Shown piece after piece: positions 4,876 through 22,997 of a DNA stretch of 27,028 nucleotides (position 1 is its first letter; every line of letters begins with the position of its first letter). The notes beneath the pieces are model-generated. The model was not told the origin of the DNA and searched no databases. It saw nothing but the letters and a program-made list of their open reading frames with translations. The position numbers and the translations under genes were made by a program. This DNA is from an uncultured Victivallales bacterium (GTDB lineage Bacteria > Verrucomicrobiota > Lentisphaeria > Oligosphaerales > JAFGRS01). The stretch is from contig CAILKC010000222.1 of assembly GCA_903834675.1 (NCBI GenBank), positions 1-27,028 on the forward strand, read 5' to 3'.

Positions 4876-5002
4876 GGCGCCATTCATCCCGAGGGAACTC
4901 ATGTTCACGGACCGCGCCACCCAGTCCAAGGCAGGGGTTGACGCAGGCCGCCTAACATAGCCACGGCAGCGAGCTGTGTCTAAGCGCGGCAGGTCAGCGC
5001 GA

Positions 5003-5270
5003 CAGGGCTGTTTCAAGAAACCGGGCTGGGCGTCGTAACACCCCGTGGTCTGTCTGCCGTATCGGGTTGCGCGAGAACACACGCCGTCAGGCATGGCACA
5101 GGCGCCAAGCCAAAGCGGTGTCGCGGTCGCCGCAGGCGACCTTGCCACACGCAGTCCACCTGGCCGCCCCGCGATATGGACTGCGTGCGGCAGAGGGCCG
5201 CGGACGCGGCCCGTCGACGCCGCTTTCACTGCCGACGGTACGACGGCGGTCGGTTCTTGAAACAGCCCTG
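5003..5270. mobile_element. MITE-like element, copy 1, carrying a cloverleaf module
   Basis: 268 bp bounded by a perfect 17-bp inverted repeat: CAGGGCTGTTTCAAGAA at 5003-5019 and its complement at 5254-5270. It is flanked by an exact 11-bp direct repeat, GGTCAGCGCGA (4992-5002 and 5271-5281), read as a target duplication. The right duplication contains the stop codon of the neighbouring secreted-protein gene. The interior holds a 115-nt module (5112-5226) closed by aaagcggtgtcg and cgacgccgcttt, with three arms: 5125-5141, 5143-5192 and 5195-5212. There is no transposase inside, so it must be mobilised in trans if it moves. It fills most of the gene-free stretch 4876-5272. Confidence 0.8.
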
Positions 5271-5272
5271 GG

Positions 5273-6589
5273 TCAGCGCGACAGGGTGTCGAGGTAGCGC
5301 TGCAACTCGGGCGCCAGTTCGCGCTCGGCTTTGGCATAGCGCCCGACCACGCTCAGAGGCAGAGCGAAACGCCTTTCGGCGGGAACGTAGCGGCGTTCCT
5401 GTTCGTCGAGGTACGCATCCAGCCGGCGCTGTTGAGCCAAGGCCGACTCAAACTCGCTGCGGGCTTTGCGCCAGCCGCTGCGGGCCGCCCGCGTCCGTCC
5501 CGCTTCGAGGTCGCGACAGGCGGCAAGGTACAGACTGACGGGCTTCTGCAGCAGAAAGGGGACATCCTTGAGCAGCTCAAAGAGGTCGTGCTGAAGTCGA
5601 CCGCTGGCCTCTTTGTCCTGCTGCAGCGCGGCCATCCTCTCCGGCAGTTCATCGAGGGGCACCCGGTTTCCCCGTGAATTCTGATCCCCGGGCACGGCCA
5701 CCGGCACCGTCACCAGGGCCTCGAAGCGTTCCGCCGTGCTGTCGGTATCGCAGTAGCCTCGTCCCCGCCGACTGCTGTCCGCCGCCGTGCGTGCGTACCA
5801 GGCCTGCAGCGTCTCGCCGGAGGTCACTGCGCCCTGCAGGACGAAACGGAGCGCCTCGACGGGCGGGCGACCGTGGGCGTCAAGCTGCAATAGCCGCTGC
5901 GCCGCGTCCAGGCCGGCAGACTCGGACAGGCAAAGCGCCAGAAGATCACAGTGCAAGGCGTACAAACGGTACAGAACCGTGGCCTCCGGGGGCACCGGGT
6001 GCTCGATCAGACGCTGCACGTCCGGGTAGATGCCGCGCTGAAACGCAAAGCGGGCCGGCTCGTAGTCCGACACGAAGCGGCCGTAGCGCTCCCGGTTGCC
6101 GAACAGAACCCGGTTGGTCAGGGCCGCGGCCAGCCATTCCGCCGAGGGCATGACCGGCGGATTGGCGTCCTCCGCGGCCATGAAGCGGCGCTGCAAGAGC
6201 GCCCGCAGCAGCCGGTGCGTCACCACTTCCATGCTGTCGTCCGGACCGAATGAGAGCGAGAGAGGGTCGGGCATCGGGGCGCCAGCGCTGTCGCCAAACC
6301 AGATCCGCAGCAGCTTGGGCGGCACGTCCGAGGCCCCGGCAAACGCCTCCACGTCGGCGAAGCAGGCGGTGGCAAAATGCTGCCAGGTCTTGGCGGTCTG
6401 TTCGCCCTTGCAGGTGACCCGAATCCGGGCCTCGGCCAAGGCTTTGGGCTCGGCCGCCTGGGCGGATCGGCTGAGCACGCACAACAGCACAACCGCGACC
6501 GTCCTCCAGAAGCGGCGGAGGAGAGGGCGCCCGGCACTCCACCAGGCGCTCACCGCGTGTTTGCTTAAGGGATGTGCGGGACAGCGCAC
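5273..6589 (-). CDS. Secreted protein with degenerate peptidase-MA-like region
   Basis: 438 residues from a GTG at 6589; a second GTG at 6553 is possible and the start is uncertain. A signal peptide is clear: basic LLRRFWR, then hydrophobic TVAVVLLCVL, then cleavage after SAQA near residue 45. I do not recognise a named family. The stretch VVTHRLLRALLQRR (122-135) followed by SAEWLAAAL (149-157) resembles the HExxH helix and downstream WLAEGLA helix of gluzincin peptidases. Glutamate and second histidine are replaced by arginine, so activity is unlikely. The rest is helical and charged. It lies 22 bp after the S41-like gene and is probably in the same transcript. Its stop codon is inside the target duplication of the mobile element at 5003-5270. 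Confidence 0.75.
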   Translation of the reverse strand: MRCPAHPLSKHAVSAWWSAGRPLLRRFWRTVAVVLLCVLSRSAQAAEPKALAEARIRVTCKGEQTAKTWQHFATACFADVEAFAGASDVPPKLLRIWFGDSAGAPMPDPLSLSFGPDDSMEVVTHRLLRALLQRRFMAAEDANPPVMPSAEWLAAALTNRVLFGNRERYGRFVSDYEPARFAFQRGIYPDVQRLIEHPVPPEATVLYRLYALHCDLLALCLSESAGLDAAQRLLQLDAHGRPPVEALRFVLQGAVTSGETLQAWYARTAADSSRRGRGYCDTDSTAERFEALVTVPVAVPGDQNSRGNRVPLDELPERMAALQQDKEASGRLQHDLFELLKDVPFLLQKPVSLYLAACRDLEAGRTRAARSGWRKARSEFESALAQQRRLDAYLDEQERRYVPAERRFALPLSVVGRYAKAERELAPELQRYLDTLSR

Positions 6590-7983: not shown

Positions 7984-8111
7984 GGTCGACTCTGCCCCCT
8001 CTTGTTAAGGACCGCTCTAGCGCGCCCCGGTCTAGCCGTACCGACGGCCCAAGGCGGGCTGAAAAAATAGCCGCCCGGAGATGAAGCTGCAACCAGCCAT
8101 CGGCCTACAGC

Positions 8112-8377
8112 AGGGCTGTTTCAAGAATCGACCGCCGTCGTCCCGCCGACAGTGAAAGCGGCGTCGACGGGCCGCGGACGCGGCCCTTTGCCGCACGCAG
8201 TCCATATCGCGCGGCGGCCATGTGGACTGCGTGTGGCAAGGTCGCCGACGGCGACCGCGACACCGCTTTGGCTTGGCGCCTGTGCCATGCCTGACGGCGC
8301 GTGTTCTCGCACAACCCGATACGGCAGACAGAGCACGGGTTGTTGCGACGCCCAACCCCGTCTCTTAAAACAGCCCT
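8112..8377. mobile_element. MITE-like element, copy 2, inverted relative to copy 1
   Basis: 266 bp, same family as 5003-5270 but in the opposite orientation. Left end AGGGCTGTTTCAAGAA (8112-8127); the right end CTTAAAACAGCCCT is the diverged complement. Flanking direct repeats CGGCCTACAGC (8101-8111) and CGGCCTACGGC (8378-8388) differ at one base and give an 11-bp target duplication. The right copy contains the stop codon (8382-8384) of the large minus-strand gene. The 115-nt cloverleaf module is at 8155-8269, read on the minus strand, with arms at 8240-8256, 8189-8238 and 8169-8186. No coding capacity. It fills most of the gene-free stretch 7984-8381. Confidence 0.78.
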
Positions 8378-8381
8378 CGGC

Positions 8382-11300
8382 CTACGGCAGCGCCAGATCC
8401 GCCAGCGGCGCGGGAACTTCGGCGGGATCGGAACTGAGGTACGGGCAAACCTCGCCGCCAAGCCATAGGGAGATGTCCTGCAACGGCCAGCACTCCAGCG
8501 TCCAGACCCTTCCAGCCGCCTCGGGACCGACCTCAATCGGCTGCGGGGTGCCGACCCAGCGCCCATCGCGGTCCAGGGCCACGCGGCCGTCGGGAGCGCT
8601 GATCCGGATACGTGCCGTCTCGGTCTCCCCGCCGTCACGGGCGGCAAGATGAAAAGTCCGAGCGCCCTTGGGCACGTAGAACCAGCGCTTGATCGGGCTG
8701 CAGAACAGCGACAGGGGGACGTCGGCGGTAGCCACCTCCGCCAAGGCCAGGCCGCCCGCTTCCACCTCGGCCGAACCGCTGCCGGCATCGACCAGCACAT
8801 GCAGGACTCCGGCCTCCGCCGCCTTGGCTGTCAGCACGACACCCTCGTCCACCGGCGCCGTTCCGCTAGCCACGGTTGCGAAGGCGACGTCCAGGAGCCT
8901 GGCCTTGAGCGTATCCACGTACTTGGTGACCCGGAGGTTGCGGACCGTCACCTGCACCTCTTCGCCGGCCTGGCGCCAGAGCGCGACCTGGTTGCTGCGT
9001 CGCAGGCGTGCCTTGGTCGCCACCACCGGCACGGCCGAATTTGGCTGACGGAGTACGCCCAGGCGCTCCCTGACCTCACAGGGGATGTCGGCCGTCATGC
9101 CATCGACCTGCCCCGGAGCGTACTTTACGGTCAGGAGAAGGTTGGCCGTCTGCGTCTTGGCGCCCAGCGGTGGCGTCAGGGTCAGGCGGATCGGTCGTTC
9201 GAGCAACGCGGGCAAATGGATCTCGGCCGGAACCGTACTCACAACCCAGCCCTCGGGGCCAGTCGCCGCCGCCGCCACGGTCAGATTCTGGGGCGATAGG
9301 TTCCGTACCGTCAGCTCCGTAACCACCGACCGACCCGCTACGGCAACGGCGGCCTGGAGGGGGACATTCAGGGCCAACGGACGATTGCTTTCCAGCCACA
9401 GAACGGCCGTCAGCCGCAAGTCCGCCGCGCCGACCGGACAACCCACGAAGGCGACCACCGGCACCAGGCGTTCCACGTAATCCTCCTGGCGCAACAAAAC
9501 CTGGGCCGTGACCAGGTTGGACCCCGCCGCCGCCGGTACGAGGCTGATCTCGAGGGCCTCGGCAGGCACGTCGGCCAGGGCGGTCAGACGCACCGTTGGC
9601 GCCACGCTGCTGCCATGGGTGATCAGGGTGACGGCCTTGGGCAGGCCGGGAGTCAGCCAATCGTCTTCGGACACCAGCGTCGCGTCGATCCCACTGACCC
9701 CGGAGACCAGAGCATTGACGCGCTGCGCCAGAGCCAGCAATGGACTGCCCGGGCTGGCCATGGACGGGGTCCGCCGACAGGCCTCGAACAGAGCGGCCAG
9801 AGACTGCGACAGGACCCCGAGGGTTTCCACCGAGGGCGCCTCGCACAGGCCTTCCAGGGCCCGGCGAACCACTTCGGCTTCCGTCACGGCGACGCCGCAG
9901 GCCTTGGCCCGTTCCAGGATGGTCTTGCCGGCCGCCTTGTCCGGCGCCCAGTAGCCGACCAGGCGTTCCCCGGCGCCGGCGGAGACCGCCAGGGCCGACT
10001 GCAGCGGCGGCAGGGCAATGGGCCCGGTCCCGCCCCCGGCTAGAAACCCCGCCACCAGGCCGGGCTTGGCGAAGTTCAATTCGCCGGCGCCGGAGACCCG
10101 GCAAAGCAACCAGTCCGCCTCGCCGCCCCACACCGTCACCCGCGGTTCGCCGGCGCTGACCCGGTGCGGCAGCCGCCGCAACAGCGCGAAGGGCTGCTCG
10201 AGTTGCCGCCGCGGTAGCCCCCAACCCTCCGCGGCCGGGCCGCGCCGTTCCGCCTGCCGACCGAGACGCGGCACGAGCGCCCCTTGCCCGTCCACGCTCA
10301 GCGCTTCCACGGTCGACTCGTTTGCTCCGAACCCTTGCGCCACCAGGCCGTCGCTGCAAGCCCACAGGCGCCCTTCCTTCTCCACCTGCGGCGGCATGGC
10401 CCCGGCAGTGGCAGTCAGCAGCTCCCAGGGGCACTCCTCCAACGGCTGCCGACGGACCGGCCGCGAGCTGGCGCCAACCGCCAGGATCATGGCCTGGTTG
10501 GGCCCCAGGCTGATTCGGCAGGCCCCAGCGTCGTCCAGCTCCGCAGCCGCGGCGTCGGGCCAGAGGACCGTCAAGCGACTGTCCGCCGCCAGTCCCAGAC
10601 CCGCCAGGTCCAGCCAGAGCTCCGCGTTCTGCGCCACCGCCGTGAGGTTCACCAAGGCCACGCCGACGGCATTGCCCTGCCGCCAGGCTGAGCCCAGGAC
10701 CGCGGGACCCTGCCACTGCCGCCGTTTGCCGCCCAGCACGCCATAGGCCACCGTGTGCGGCGCCGCCGCCAGAGCCAGGCGCCCCGTCGGCCGGCTGGAC
10801 CCCGTGGGCACCAGCGCCAGGCGTTCCCATTGGCCATCCTGTAGGAAGGGTTTGCCGACCCGATAGTAGGCCTGAACCAGTTCGCGCAACAGCTCGCTGT
10901 TCCGGTCCCCTTCGCGGGGTGGCACGGCCACGCTGGTCGAGAGCAGCGGCACAAACCCCCAGGTGAACAGGGTCCCCATCTGCAGCGCAAAGGCATCGGC
11001 ATCCAGGTCAAGCTGCGCATCGCTGCCGAAGTTGATGGTGTACGGATGGTAGACGGCACTGAAGAGCGGGAAGACCTGCTCCCCGGCGCCCAGGGACGAG
11101 CGGGTCAAGTCGAGGGTCAGGAACCCGTCCATCAGGTCGAGGAACTGCTCCCCGATCTCCTCGGTGAAGAAGCAGGCATCCGGGACCTTCCGGCGCGTGC
11201 TCAAACGCAACTCTTCCATGAGCCGGCGGTTGTTCTGCGAGCGATGATCGCCGCCGTGCAGGCTGTGCTGATGCTGCGGATCGTAGCAGGGCAGGGTGCG

Positions 11301-12782
11301 CACCGCGGCCAGGCAGTCGAGATAGACCCCGGCCATGCCCTGCTCGCCGACCAGCTTGCCGGTGGTTTCGCGCAGCTTGGCCCGCCAGGGCTCAACCGGG
11401 CACATGTGGGCAAACACCTCGCTCGCGATCGTCCAGGGAACCAGGCGGCCAGTGTCGTCCTTGACCGCGGCCGCCTGGCCGTTCTCACGACGCCAGCTCT
11501 GCGTATCCGTATCCCAGATGACGCCGTTGATGTAGGGCAAAGGCATCACCCCCATCTCGCGGGCCGCCACCATCCCCTGAAGCAGGTACGGGTCCGCAGG
11601 CAGGGGCTCCGGGTAGTCGTCGTCGAAGCGAGCGATGGTGTAGCGGTAATAGTGCGACGCCAGCGGGACCCGTAGCCACTTCTTGTAGGCGGCCCATTCC
11701 GGTACGACCTTCGCCGGCTCATGGTAGAACTTCGCCCAAAAGCCGATCTGCCGAAACCAGAGGGGTACCCAGAGCGCCTCGTCGGCCGTGCCGGGCGCGG
11801 GCGCTTGCTGCGGCCACGACTCCGCAGTTCCGCGCCGGCACCAGGCTTTGCGGCGGGCCCAGTCGCGATAGATGGCGGCGGCCTCATGGTAGTCGCCCCG
11901 GAACGCGGTCAACACCACGGGATACGGCAGGACATAGCTGACCGGGTGCTGTCCCGGCGTGATCGGCCACTGGTCCAGGGGCGGCAGATGATGCACCCAC
12001 CAACTCAGGCGACCCGGCACGGTGCGGGTATCCACCGCAAAGCGTTTGTGCCAGCCATCGCCGTCTTCGGCGGCCAGATACAGCCCAGCCGCCGCGCTCA
12101 GATCCGGACGCCAACCGGATTCCGTCACCGTGCCCGCCACGGGCGCCGACAAGGCCGGAAGCCGCGGTGTCGGCGTGCCCCAGTACGCCAGCCACTGCAT
12201 CGAGGCGGGCTGCGGGTAGTCCAGCAAGACCTGGGTCTTCGCGCCGATGGGGTCACGCACCAGCCGACCGAGATACAGCGGCAGGGCAAGCTCGTCATCA
12301 GAGGGGCCCTTCAACCCCAGAAGCCGTGGAAACTGCACGTCCCACAGGGCGCCCTCCAGGCTGCCCTCCACCGCGATCTCCCAGCGCGATTTCCCTTCGC
12401 TCGGAACCAGCAACACCTGCACCGTCACGGACAGCTCGCCGTCGAGTCCCGGCGCCCGCACGCCGGTCCAGGCCAGCTCCAGGGTACGCCCCGACAGTCT
12501 GTGGGTCAGGCGGGTCGCGTCCCTGGCGGTAAGCTCCCGGAAGCCGCCGTCGGCGGCCCTCAGCACCAACAGCCACGGGGAACGATTCGGGGCCGACTCG
12601 CCGAGCGGCGGCAGAAAGACCGTGTCGCAGGGAATGTTGCGCAGTCCGCACAGGCCGCCCTGCGCCTCCAGGTCAAACACCATCTCCATGGACTCGTTGA
12701 CCAGGCTGACCTCAACCCCGCCGGCAAGGCGTGTCAGCAGAACCAGCCCAAGCAGTGTACTCATCGCCAGCCAGCGCGTCAT
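8382..12782 (-). CDS. Large secreted glycoside-hydrolase-like protein (DUF6259-like) with NEW3-type domain
   Basis: 1466 residues from ATG 12782, with GGGAGGA about 7 nt upstream; the frame to 12815 is longer but lacks this site. A signal peptide occupies about 1-22. Residues ~23-290 look like a beta-rich sugar-binding domain. RGDYHEAAAIYRDWARRK (295-312) leads into a putative TIM barrel (~340-700) resembling DUF6259 proteins. Candidate acidic catalytic residues are D489 in GVYLDCLA and E541/E542 in FFTEEIGE, assigned by pattern only. Residues about 1146-1220 match the NEW3/NPCBM-associated domain of alpha-galactosidases, and further beta domains follow. It probably acts on a polysaccharide outside the cytoplasm. 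It is transcribed alone, from a promoter near 12896-12923. The stop codon lies inside the target duplication of the 8112-8377 element. Confidence 0.8.
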   Translation of the reverse strand: MTRWLAMSTLLGLVLLTRLAGGVEVSLVNESMEMVFDLEAQGGLCGLRNIPCDTVFLPPLGESAPNRSPWLLVLRAADGGFRELTARDATRLTHRLSGRTLELAWTGVRAPGLDGELSVTVQVLLVPSEGKSRWEIAVEGSLEGALWDVQFPRLLGLKGPSDDELALPLYLGRLVRDPIGAKTQVLLDYPQPASMQWLAYWGTPTPRLPALSAPVAGTVTESGWRPDLSAAAGLYLAAEDGDGWHKRFAVDTRTVPGRLSWWVHHLPPLDQWPITPGQHPVSYVLPYPVVLTAFRGDYHEAAAIYRDWARRKAWCRRGTAESWPQQAPAPGTADEALWVPLWFRQIGFWAKFYHEPAKVVPEWAAYKKWLRVPLASHYYRYTIARFDDDYPEPLPADPYLLQGMVAAREMGVMPLPYINGVIWDTDTQSWRRENGQAAAVKDDTGRLVPWTIASEVFAHMCPVEPWRAKLRETTGKLVGEQGMAGVYLDCLAAVRTLPCYDPQHQHSLHGGDHRSQNNRRLMEELRLSTRRKVPDACFFTEEIGEQFLDLMDGFLTLDLTRSSLGAGEQVFPLFSAVYHPYTINFGSDAQLDLDADAFALQMGTLFTWGFVPLLSTSVAVPPREGDRNSELLRELVQAYYRVGKPFLQDGQWERLALVPTGSSRPTGRLALAAAPHTVAYGVLGGKRRQWQGPAVLGSAWRQGNAVGVALVNLTAVAQNAELWLDLAGLGLAADSRLTVLWPDAAAAELDDAGACRISLGPNQAMILAVGASSRPVRRQPLEECPWELLTATAGAMPPQVEKEGRLWACSDGLVAQGFGANESTVEALSVDGQGALVPRLGRQAERRGPAAEGWGLPRRQLEQPFALLRRLPHRVSAGEPRVTVWGGEADWLLCRVSGAGELNFAKPGLVAGFLAGGGTGPIALPPLQSALAVSAGAGERLVGYWAPDKAAGKTILERAKACGVAVTEAEVVRRALEGLCEAPSVETLGVLSQSLAALFEACRRTPSMASPGSPLLALAQRVNALVSGVSGIDATLVSEDDWLTPGLPKAVTLITHGSSVAPTVRLTALADVPAEALEISLVPAAAGSNLVTAQVLLRQEDYVERLVPVVAFVGCPVGAADLRLTAVLWLESNRPLALNVPLQAAVAVAGRSVVTELTVRNLSPQNLTVAAAATGPEGWVVSTVPAEIHLPALLERPIRLTLTPPLGAKTQTANLLLTVKYAPGQVDGMTADIPCEVRERLGVLRQPNSAVPVVATKARLRRSNQVALWRQAGEEVQVTVRNLRVTKYVDTLKARLLDVAFATVASGTAPVDEGVVLTAKAAEAGVLHVLVDAGSGSAEVEAGGLALAEVATADVPLSLFCSPIKRWFYVPKGARTFHLAARDGGETETARIRISAPDGRVALDRDGRWVGTPQPIEVGPEAAGRVWTLECWPLQDISLWLGGEVCPYLSSDPAEVPAPLADLALP

Positions 12783-12895
12783 CGCTTGTCCTCCCGTCGG
12801 AAGATCACTCGTCAAAAAGCCGTAGAGCGGCCCCCTCGCTCAGTCGAGGGCGCCCCGCCCCGCCAGCCGTTCCGGGGTTTCGCCACAGCCGCCGC

Positions 12896-16541: not shown

Positions 16542-16548
16542 GCCACGG

Positions 16549-16657
16549 TCCCAGAAGATGGAGCGGCCGCGGCTCGCGGCCAGAGCCGACCCGACGGTCG
16601 GCGCTCCCAGAAGATGGAGCGGCCGCGGCTCGCGGCCAGAGCCGACCCGACGGTGGG
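16549..16657. repeat. Two copies of a 56-bp hairpin repeat
   Basis: Units beginning TCCCAGAAGATGGAGC start at 16549 and 16605 (period 56) and are nearly identical until the second diverges after CCCGACGGT. Each contains a perfect palindrome, GGCCGCG-GCT-CGCGGCC, a 7-bp stem with a 3-nt loop. The first unit begins 7 nt after the stop of the upstream oxidoreductase. Confidence 0.85.
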
Positions 16658-17993: not shown

Positions 17994-18150
17994 GCGGGCG
18001 GGTTCGCGGTATCCCCCGTGGGACGGCGCGCTATCCCTGGAGCCCGCGATGCCCAGCCCGTTGCGGGCGGGTTCGCGGTATCCCCCGTGGGACGGCGCGC
18101 TATCCCTGGAGCCCGCGATGCCCAGCCCGTTGCGGGCGGGTTCGCGGTAT
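17994..18150. repeat. 69-bp tandem repeat between convergent genes
   Basis: Units beginning GGTTCGCGGTATCCCCC start at 18001, 18070 and 18139 (period exactly 69). The first two are essentially identical and the third is a 12-bp stub ending a few bases before the glnN stop codon (18153). A partial copy of the unit's tail (GCGGGC) precedes the first. The array fills the whole gap between the stops of the MFS and glnN genes. Confidence 0.92.
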
Positions 18151-21607: not shown

Positions 21608-21796
21608 CCCGGCGCCGCGCTGCGCCAGCTCCCGCCTGCCGCCTGCGTGACCCTGACTATACCGCGACAGAAAAGCAGCGGCAAGCACCGCGCGCCAACG
21701 ACCGTAATGCCAGAGAAGTTCGCCGCGGACCGTGGAGGGCGAACCTCTCCAGGCGCGCAGGCGCCGCTGAGCCGTCGGCAAGAGGCGAGCGCGACG

Positions 21797-22117
21797 GGGA
21801 ACGGCTCACCGCCTTTGGCGGCCTTGCCACGCGCACTCCAAAAGGGGCGGCGCGTCTCCCACTATGGACTGCGCGCGGCAGAGGGCTGCTGGCCAGCAGA
21901 CCGCCGACGCCGCTTTCACTCCCGGCGCCCCGCCAAAGCGGTGTCGCGTCCGCCTTTGGCGGTCTTGCCACGCGCACTCCAAAAAGGGCGCGTCTCCCAC
22001 TTTGGACTGCGTGCGGCAGAGGTCTGCTGGCCAGCAGACCGCCGACGCCGCTTTCACTCCCAGCGCCCCGCCAAAGCGGTGTCGCGGTCGCTTTCGCGGC
22101 CTTGCCACCGCAGTCCA
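21797..22117. repeat. Array of 2.3 cloverleaf repeat units downstream of the RAYT gene
   Basis: Period about 138-141 bp. Unit B (21935-22054) is complete: outer stem aaagcggtgtcg (21935-21946) with cgacgccgcttt (22043-22054); arm 1 CCGCC-TTT-GGCGG (21950-21962); arm 2 21966-21981 with 22003-22018; arm 3 the perfect 20-bp palindrome GGTCTGCTGGCCAGCAGACC (22021-22040). Unit A (~21797-21916) has a degraded left outer stem. Unit C starts at 22073 and is cut off inside arm 2, three bases before the RAYT stop codon. The module is the same as in the elements at 5003-5270 and 8112-8377. The rest of the gap (21608-21796) shows no gene. Confidence 0.88.
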
Positions 22118-22119
22118 CA

Positions 22120-22719
22120 TCACCAGTCCGGGGCAGCGTCGTACTCGTCTGAGACCTGCAGCCGGTCTATCGGCAGCGCGTAGATCGTTCTGATCTGCGC
22201 CGACAGCGCCGTCCGCTCAAACCAGCCCGCCGAGCACCATGGGTACAGGTTCGCCACAGGTACCAGGCAGTGTTTCACGGGGTTCTGATGCGCGTAATTC
22301 AGCCGCGTCAGGTACGACTTCTGGTAAGTCAGCCGCGTCTCGCGGAAGTTGTGCCAGACCTTCCGGCCGGGTCTGCCGTCCTGACGATTGACCCACTTGG
22401 CGGTCTTCTCATGCAGCAGCCCCAGCATGCCGCTGAGACTCTCGGCCCCGGGCGGTTTCGGCGGGGAGTGGCCCACAAAGTGGTAATGGTTCGAGAATAC
22501 GGCCCACGCCTCCAGTTGCCAGCCGAAGTCGCCGGCCACGGCCAGAAGTCCGCGATGCAGAACCTCCAGCCGTGCCGCCCCGCGGAAGTGATGCTCTTTG
22601 CGGTAGGTTCCCACCGTCACGAAGTAGGTGCCGCTCTCCGCCAGCCTATGCACCGGAGCATGCGGCCACGGCGGCGCTTTGTGGAGAGTGGATCTGCCGT
22701 TGTCGCATCCTGTGCTCAT
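22120..22719 (-). CDS. REP-associated tyrosine transposase (RAYT, Y1/HUH family)
   Basis: 199 residues from ATG 22719, with GGGGAGAGG just upstream; a TTG at 22737 adds six residues taken from the adjoining repeat and is rejected. A single-strand DNA transposase-like nuclease. The N-terminal strand is TYFVTVGTYR (31-40), the HUH metal motif is HYH (78-80, in SNHYHFVGH) and the likely nucleophile is Y142 in NYAHQNPVKH, which matches the RAYT Y-x-x-x-NPV pattern. RAYTs are domesticated IS200/IS605 relatives that are normally single-copy and flanked by the palindromic repeats they process. Here structured repeats touch both ends of the gene: a truncated unit ends 3 nt before the stop and a full unit starts 17 nt above the start codon. 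The gene looks intact. Confidence 0.92.
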   Translation of the reverse strand: MSTGCDNGRSTLHKAPPWPHAPVHRLAESGTYFVTVGTYRKEHHFRGAARLEVLHRGLLAVAGDFGWQLEAWAVFSNHYHFVGHSPPKPPGAESLSGMLGLLHEKTAKWVNRQDGRPGRKVWHNFRETRLTYQKSYLTRLNYAHQNPVKHCLVPVANLYPWCSAGWFERTALSAQIRTIYALPIDRLQVSDEYDAAPDW

Positions 22720-22735: not shown

Positions 22736-22855
22736 AAAGCGGTGTCGCGTCCGCCTTTGGCGGTCTTGCCACGCGCACTCCAAAAGGGGCGGCGCGTCTC
22801 CCACTTTGGACTGCGTGCGGCAGAGGTCTGCTGGCCAGCCGACCGCCGACGCTTT
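22736..22855. repeat. Cloverleaf repeat unit upstream of the RAYT gene
   Basis: Nearly identical to unit B at 21935-22054 and in the same orientation: aaagcggtgtcg at 22736-22747, CCGCC-TTT-GGCGG arm, then GGTCTGCTGGCCAGC, with the second half of arm 3 slightly changed (CCGACC). A 3-bp deletion in the closing stem leaves cgacgcttt. Between this unit and the next gene (22856-22997) I see only the ribosome site of that gene. Confidence 0.88.
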
Positions 22856-22997
22856 CACTATCGGTGGTCAGGAGCCGCAGGTCCAACTATTGGAACAGTC
22901 CCAGCGAACGACTGGCGGCCGGCCAAACCCCGCGCCATGGTAGGCACGGTGACGATCGTGAGGCTGGCATCATGGCAAGACTCGGGAGGTAGAGCTG

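What the first reader, a model, noticed from the sequence alone, without database searches (positions are those of the whole stretch)
5112..5226. 115-nt cloverleaf module with compensatory stem changes
The module is closed by aaagcggtgtcg/cgacgccgcttt (12 pairs, one T-G) and has three internal arms. In both MITE-like copies arm 1 is GGTCGCC/GGCGACC and arm 3 is GGGCCGCG/CGCGGCCC; in the RAYT-flanking units these are CCGCC/GGCGG and GGTCTGCTGG/CCAGCAGACC. Pairing is kept while sequence changes. The arm 1 loop also differs between the two MITE-like copies, and arm 2 pairs over about 15 positions. This pattern indicates selection on structure, either as folded DNA or as RNA.
Basis: seen in the sequence. 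Interest (0 to 1): 0.85.

Follow-up and report, generated by a model that had tools for sequence, protein, structure and literature searches.

The report
Paired hairpin repeats of a transposase
The 115-base cloverleaf is two back-to-back copies of a small DNA hairpin repeat that goes with a tame single-strand-DNA transposase (a REP pair); evolution keeps each hairpin paired more strictly than the cloverleaf as a whole, and the repeat carries an unusual recognition tag.

Summary
The module is real. It is a REPIN: two REP hairpins in inverted orientation, belonging to the RAYT gene at 22120-22719. Each half is AAA-GCGGYG-[arm]-CRC(N)CGC-A(C/G)TCCA. Arms 1 and 3 of the "cloverleaf" are the tips of the two hairpins; its closing helix and arm 2 are pairings between the repeats.

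Covariation supports the single hairpin. In 55 repeats beside RAYT genes, stem pairs 4, 5, 6 are Watson-Crick in 54, 47, 54. In 41 inward pairs, positions 4-6 pair within a repeat in 233/246 cells, between repeats in 149/246. In the window the between-repeat helices show no compensatory change. Against this, the folding energy of the whole pair is the lower one in 41/41, and 8 of 41 pairs are homodimers.

Repeats lie within ~300 bp of 29 of 30 related RAYT genes; the strict motif is in 79/387 genomes of one phylum and 27/396 of a second. The tag is GGA(C/G)T, not GT(A/G)G; two GTAG-contact residues of E. coli are replaced.

A new variant of a known kind. Two copies sit inside a ~267-bp MITE-like element.

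The parts
5003..5270 (+). MITE-like element A, 17-bp terminal inverted repeats CAGGGCTGTTTCAAGAA, carrying the REP pair
   Evidence: inverted arms 5003-5019 / 5254-5270, 100% complementary; 11-bp direct repeat GGTCAGCGCGA at 4992-5002 and 5271-5281
5112..5226 (+). module A: inverted pair of two different REP hairpins (REPIN)
5112..5158 (+). left REP of A: AAA, base stem GCG-GTG/CAC-A-CGC, arm 1 (5125-5141), AGTCCA tag (tag strand 5'-TGGACT)
   Evidence: base stem Watson-Crick in 24 of 24 cells over four window copies; the program's DNA fold uses a neighbouring register with a bulged G
5177..5226 (-). right REP of A: base stem GCG-GCG/CGC-A-CGC, arm 3 (5195-5212), tag TGGACT
   Evidence: base stem Watson-Crick in 21 of 24 cells, 1 G.T, 2 gaps, the last three in copy D; DNA fold
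8112..8377 (-). MITE-like element B, with 8-bp direct repeat CGGCCTAC at 8101-8108 and 8378-8385
   Evidence: inverted arms 8112-8126 / 8363-8377, 93% complementary
8155..8269 (-). module B: REP pair, opposite orientation to A
21791..21916 (+). partial RAYT-side unit: degenerate left REP, right REP (21865-21916) with full ends
21935..22054 (+). RAYT-side REP pair C2
22073..22118 (+). left REP without an inward partner, ending just beside the RAYT stop codon, no extra base (GCGGTG/CACCGC)
22120..22719 (-). RAYT (TnpA-REP-like HuH tyrosine transposase), 199 aa
   Evidence: NCBIfam NF047646 REP-associated tyrosine transposase 66.6 bits, E 2.1e-18, below its cut-off of 80; only PDB match at E<=1 is 4ER8, E. 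coli TnpA-REP, E 6e-4; no Pfam match at 1e-3
22736..22855 (+). RAYT-side REP pair D (right REP damaged by a 3-base deletion and substitutions)

Best explanation
The module is a REPIN of a RAYT system: two REP hairpins in inverted orientation, tags facing inward. Each REP is a hairpin (base stem GCGGYG/CRCCGC, often with an apical arm) with unpaired AAA on one side and the tag on the other (tag strand 5'-TGGA(G/C)T). SHOWN: shape, covariation of the single hairpin, physical and genome-level association with this RAYT family, copy number in other genomes, a tag other than GT(A/G)G. INFERRED: the RAYT, as known for E. coli TnpA-REP, binds the folded hairpin plus tag when the DNA is single-stranded, cuts and rejoins there, and so spreads the pair; where the two hairpins of a pair differ, each stays a good substrate while the long palindrome they could form together is weakened. 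In the window two pairs also sit inside a MITE-like element and probably moved with it.
For: Repeats within ~300 bp of 29 of 30 RAYT loci, both sides in 26, reversed control motif 0; density 4.73/kb near the gene against 0.28/kb further away, counted with a narrower pattern. Second phylum: all 8 RAYT loci examined have a repeat within ~200 bp, 7 on both sides. Co-occurrence: strict motif in 31 of 42 genomes with a RAYT match at E<=1e-30 against 48 of 345 others (Fisher p 1.3e-15, lists). Covariation: 55 repeats next to protein-selected RAYT genes, pairs 4/5/6 Watson-Crick in 54/47/54; 142 distinct repeats 137/128/137, shuffle maxima 113/70/106, pairs 5 and 6 in all four types; pair 5 in 63 distinct repeats: 37 CG, 21 TA, 1 GC, 2 TC, 1 TG, 1 CA. 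Pairs of repeats: 33 of 41 inward pairs are heterodimers; at 52 stem positions where the halves differ, 40 stay Watson-Crick inside both halves; 68 outward pairs, within 394/408, between 272/408. HuH (H 120, Y 119, H 118) and catalytic Tyr (119) kept in the 120 nearest RAYTs.
Against: The full pair has lower folding energy than its two hairpins apart in 41 of 41 inward pairs, with 20 or more pairings between the halves in 34. 8 of 41 inward and 20 of 68 outward pairs are homodimers, where both readings pair equally well. In the window's own repeats an extra base in the 3' stem pairs in arm 2 but is a bulge in the single hairpin; the within-repeat counts allow that bulge (without it 196/246 against 133/246). 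PMC3116915 (passages) reports compensatory changes in the between-half spacer of Pseudomonas REPINs. The tag is not GT(A/G)G. The RAYT is below NCBIfam's cut-off. Many motif-bearing genomes have no close RAYT: 48 of 79 in the first phylum, 19 of 27 in the second; 11 of 42 RAYT genomes lack the strict motif. No mobility, binding or cleavage was observed. No genome is held for the window.
Confidence: 0.9

Rival explanations
1. Structured RNA (riboswitch-like or small RNA cloverleaf) under selection as a four-helix fold.
For: Very low RNA folding energy, z -7.7; both MITE copies lie between same-strand ORFs, a few bases after a stop codon, so they may be transcribed.
Against: No Rfam match at gathering score in the window. 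The two helices that only a cloverleaf has show no compensatory change in the window and 149/246 cells paired in 41 inward pairs against 233/246 for the single hairpin.
Confidence: 0.04
2. Only a MITE of a DDE transposase; the fold is a by-product of its palindromes.
For: A and B have inverted ends of 17 and 15 bp and direct repeats of 11 and 8 bp. One genome (G294) has 76 hits of the same end sequence, and 2 of its 10 fetched loci show both ends of a ~166-bp element (L168, L170).
Against: The same module occurs beside the RAYT without those ends (no match with up to 3 mismatches there). The hairpins occur in 79 of 387 genomes, the MITE end in 8 of 387, seven of them with a single hit, no more than the reversed control, which hits 6 genomes once each. 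True for the carrier, not for the module.
Confidence: 0.03
3. The module is the two ends (LE/RE) of an IS200/IS605-like insertion sequence with the RAYT as its transposase, and the pair is its deletion derivative.
For: A left REP lies at one end of the RAYT gene (22073-22118) and a full pair at the other (22736-22855).
Against: Flanking repeats occur in both orientations (downstream: tag toward the gene 20, away 9; upstream: toward 12, away 14), not as a fixed left end and right end; repeats can far outnumber the gene, e.g. 102 strict-motif copies and 3 RAYT matches in G249.
Confidence: 0.03

Closest known systems
REP / REPIN / BIME with RAYT (TnpA-REP), E. coli and Pseudomonas type (PMC3116915, PMC8266576, PMC6006769, PMC3733652; passages and single sections seen)
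   Same: Short hairpins, inverted doublets, next to a HuH-Y1 transposase, many copies, compensatory stem changes, homo- and heterodimers (PMC3733652 section 14).
   Different: Tag GGA(C/G)T directly 5' of the hairpin instead of GT(A/G)G; E. coli tag-contact residues Q95 and R104 are H and T in 108 and 116 of the 120 nearest RAYTs; some units, the window's included, carry an apical arm of their own.
TIRtron / TIRYT (PMC3733652, passages)
   Same: RAYT-like genes flanked by repeats without GTAG, some self-complementary and forming repeat families, including in Acidobacteria.
   Different: The reported shared motif GGGGWSAS was not compared here; the figure with the sequences is not held, so an overlap with this family cannot be excluded.
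Opitutus terrae GTAG REPs (PMC3733652, passages)
   Same: REPs in a Verrucomicrobiota member, also as dimers.
   Different: Described there as GTAG/GTGG-tagged; sequences not seen by me.
Subclass 2.6 (Bacteroidetes) and class 3 TnpA-Y1 with atypical structures (PMC6006769, passages)
   Same: Non-GTRG feet.
   Different: Class 3 foot is CnGA; 'verrucomicrobi' does not occur in that paper's main text.

Membership tests
REP/REPIN-RAYT (REPtron) | HuH single-Tyr transposase gene of the RAYT type | tested here: met
   NF047646 E 2.1e-18 but below cut-off; PDB 4ER8; HuH and Tyr kept in at least 118 of 120
REP/REPIN-RAYT (REPtron) | repeats flank the RAYT gene | tested here: met
   29 of 30 loci, 26 on both sides; 8 of 8 in a second phylum, 7 on both sides
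REP/REPIN-RAYT (REPtron) | short hairpin with conserved pairing | tested here: met
REP/REPIN-RAYT (REPtron) | many copies per genome | tested here: met
   up to 102 strict-motif copies in a genome of the first phylum, 108 in the second; 79 of 387 and 27 of 396 genomes; not countable in the window's own genome
REP/REPIN-RAYT (REPtron) | inverted doublets (REPIN) | tested here: met
   41 distinct inward and 68 outward pairs in the fetched DNA; a centre pattern hits 18 of 387 genomes, its reversed control 4
Canonical REP | GT(A/G)G tetranucleotide at the 5' foot | tested here: not met
   GGA(C/G)T directly 5' of 104 hairpins in 37 of 39 loci; GT(A/G)G 28 in 15 loci, below same-form controls GA(A/G)G 42 in 18 and GC(A/G)G 91 in 27
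REP/REPIN-RAYT (REPtron) | RAYT cuts and rejoins single-stranded REP | not testable with these tools
   needs an in vitro assay
CGTC repeats | CGTC unpaired tag, no associated transposase | tested here: not met
   the feet are A(C/G)TCC in 76 hairpins from 29 of 30 loci, 64 of them with A(A/G)A on the other side, and the repeats are RAYT-associated; CGTC itself was not counted
TIRtron/TIRYT | RAYT-like gene flanked by long TIRs unrelated to REPs, often with GGGGWSAS | not tested
   published sequences are in a figure not held
Known RNA family | Rfam covariance model match | tested here: not met
   0 matches at gathering threshold in the whole window

The most novel reading that the evidence does not exclude
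A REP-RAYT class of its own, spread over at least two phyla, whose transposases have changed the residues that read the tag (Q95H, R104T in E. coli numbering) together with a switch of the tag from GT(A/G)G to GGA(C/G)T, and whose mobile pairs are mostly built of two different, separately co-evolving hairpins.
Probability: 0.45. Interest if true: 0.5.

Novelty: new variant of a known kind. Interest (0 to 1): 0.36.

Why it matters
It gives many natural hairpin-and-tag variants paired with their transposases, across two phyla, for working out how a domesticated single-strand transposase reads its DNA. It also shows how a covariation signal that looks like one four-helix RNA can come from two inverted copies of a DNA hairpin.

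Tried and rejected
Cloverleaf as the selected fold: rejected on pair counts. Rfam: nothing at gathering score. A genome-wide count in the window's own organism: not possible, no genome held. MITE as a full explanation: rejected, since the hairpin pairs occur without the MITE ends beside the RAYT. Pfam on the RAYT: no match at 1e-3. Literature: six searches; judged by the listings, only PMC3733652 joined REPs or RAYTs with Verrucomicrobia in a relevant way, and I found no description of this tag or family in the passages seen; the library lacks most subscription papers. One search was useless, since 'repin' matched other words.

Limits. No tree-aware (R-scape-type) test was run; the shuffles keep column make-up and not relatedness, so the numbers are not probabilities, and copies within a genome are not independent. 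The 142 repeats are biased: part of the DNA was fetched with a motif that fixes stem pairs 4 and 6, 22 of them use a one-base bulge chosen to fit, and the reversed pattern gave 9 matches in the same DNA; the 55 RAYT-side repeats come from loci chosen by protein. In the 120 without a bulge the counts are 116/106/115, shuffle maxima 93/62/86. My first count of pairs (28 inward pairs, 26 heterodimers, within 160/168, between 87/168) used a pattern that dropped shorter hairpins, among them homodimers of G260 and G162; with the wider pattern gives 41 pairs from 17 sources, 33 heterodimers, 15 sources with at least one. The E<=1e-30 RAYT threshold was chosen.

Full report
What is there. A second copy is 8155-8269 on the minus strand, and there are two full and two partial copies around a RAYT gene at 22120-22719. 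A and B lie in ~267-bp elements with inverted ends of 17 and 15 bp and direct repeats of 11 and 8 bp, each placed a few bases after the stop codon of an open reading frame.

What it is. The module is two half-units facing each other: AAAGCGGTGTCGC-arm 1-TTGCCACACGCAGTCCA and, on the other strand, AAAGCGGCGTCGA-arm 3-CTCTGCCGCACGCAGTCCA. Each half can fold by itself, with base stem GCG-GYG/CRC-(N)-CGC. The same half-unit, mostly without the extra base (22 of 142 distinct repeats are best fitted with it), sits beside relatives of this RAYT. Of 387 genomes sampled from one phylum (the centre G004 is an Akkermansiaceae MAG by its record title), 122 have a RAYT match at E<=0.001. Of the 30 best loci fetched there, one per genome, 29 have a repeat of the form A(A/G)(A/G)GCG...CGC(A/G)(C/G)TCC within ~300 bp on at least one side and 26 on both; the reversed motif has none in those zones. 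Density is 4.73 per kb within ~300 bp (86 in 18,200 bp) against 0.28 per kb further out (18 in 63,734 bp), counted with a narrower pattern that finds a near repeat at 25 of the 30 loci.

Distribution. The strict motif AAAGCGGYG N3-33 CRCCGCASTCCA is in 79 of 387 genomes, up to 102 copies in one; the reversed control shows one hit, in G264. It is in 31 of 42 genomes with a RAYT match at E<=1e-30 and in 48 of 345 others (Fisher p 1.3e-15). So 48 of the 79 motif-bearing genomes have no close RAYT and 11 of 42 RAYT genomes lack the strict motif; loss of the gene, incomplete genomes and variant stems are possible reasons, not tested. Of these 27, 8 have a RAYT match at E<=1e-30 and 19 have not, against 0 of 25 motif-negative genomes that I picked (p 0.004). 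All 8 of those RAYT loci have an adjacent repeat, 7 on both sides. The RAYT of G003 is 72% identical to the window's over most of its length; the best in the first group is 67%. Horizontal spread is a fair inference, not shown. The window itself is probably from the Verrucomicrobiota/Lentisphaerota side: among the listed PurE matches that bear an organism name, seven are named Victivallales (68-73% identity) and one Lentisphaerae (70%); the closest matches bear none.

Which structure is under selection. For the 55 repeats nearest to RAYT genes in loci chosen by protein, pairs 4, 5 and 6 are Watson-Crick in 54, 47 and 54, with several pair types in different genomes. In 142 distinct repeats from all fetched DNA the counts are 137, 128 and 137; the highest of 2000 shuffles were 113, 70 and 106; pairs 5 and 6 occur as all four Watson-Crick types; pair 7 is a T.C mismatch in 79 (part of this DNA was fetched with a motif that fixes pairs 4 and 6). 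In 41 distinct inward pairs, positions 4-6 are Watson-Crick within a half in 233 of 246 cells and between halves in 149 of 246; without allowing a bulge, 196 and 133. 33 of 41 pairs, and 15 of 17 sources, have two different stems; at 52 positions where the halves differ, 40 remain paired within both halves. In 68 outward pairs the numbers are 394 and 272 of 408, with 48 heterodimers. In the window's four copies the closing stem and arm 2 have no compensatory change, while arms 1 and 3 have one and two, with one broken pair type each. Against this reading: the folding program gives the whole pair a lower energy than its two hairpins in 41 of 41, with 20 or more between-half pairs in 34; homodimers exist; and the window's extra base pairs in arm 2 but bulges in the single hairpin.

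Mechanism. E. coli TnpA-REP, the only PDB match, binds single-stranded REP hairpins strand-specifically, needs the 5' GTAG and cuts near the structure (PMC8266576, passages and one section read). By analogy, inferred, the RAYT here reads the hairpin plus GGA(C/G)T. This tag is directly 5' of 104 six-base-pair hairpins in 37 of 39 RAYT loci (both strands scanned, window included), whereas GT(A/G)G shows no excess over same-form controls. In the 120 nearest RAYTs the HuH and the catalytic Tyr are kept, but positions aligned to Q95 and R104, named as GTAG contacts in that paper, are H in 108 and T in 116. [quoted passage not shown] compensatory changes in the spacer hairpin of REPINs are reported in PMC3116915 (passages). 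So the finding fits a known kind.

What may be new. The GGA(C/G)T-tagged REPs of this RAYT family, their spread over two phyla, the accompanying change of tag-contact residues, and two pairs carried within a MITE-like element. I found none of these in the six literature searches and the passages read, but TIRYT repeats of Acidobacteria in PMC3733652 may overlap; the sequences are in a figure that is not held.

Noticed in passing
5003-5270 and 8112-8377: Both MITE-like elements sit a few bases after the stop codon of a same-strand ORF (5273-6589, 8382-12815), and the direct repeats include that stop codon, so the ORFs stay whole.
   Followed up: partly
L163, L168-L176 (genome G294): 76 hits of the MITE end AGGGCTGTTTCAAGA in one genome; two of its ten fetched loci (L168, L170) show both ends of a ~166-bp element with a different interior.
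   Followed up: partly
22890-22904: By eye, TTGGAACAGTCCCAG to the right of pair D resembles a decayed MITE end; it did not pass the 3-mismatch scan.
   Followed up: no
L034, L038: Some units have CAGAG instead of CAAAG at the 5' flank and also CAGAG after the tag, a possible direct repeat at both ends linked to the cutting site; L034 also has units where only one side is changed.
   Followed up: no
17994-18131, 16546-16657, 1-145: Tandem or near-tandem direct repeats (69 bp twice identical; 56 bp twice at 96%; 28-33-bp units near the window start).
   Followed up: no
RAYT loci: Several RAYT homologs show one in-frame stop within the matched stretch; whether this is decay or the natural end of the gene was not examined.
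   Followed up: no
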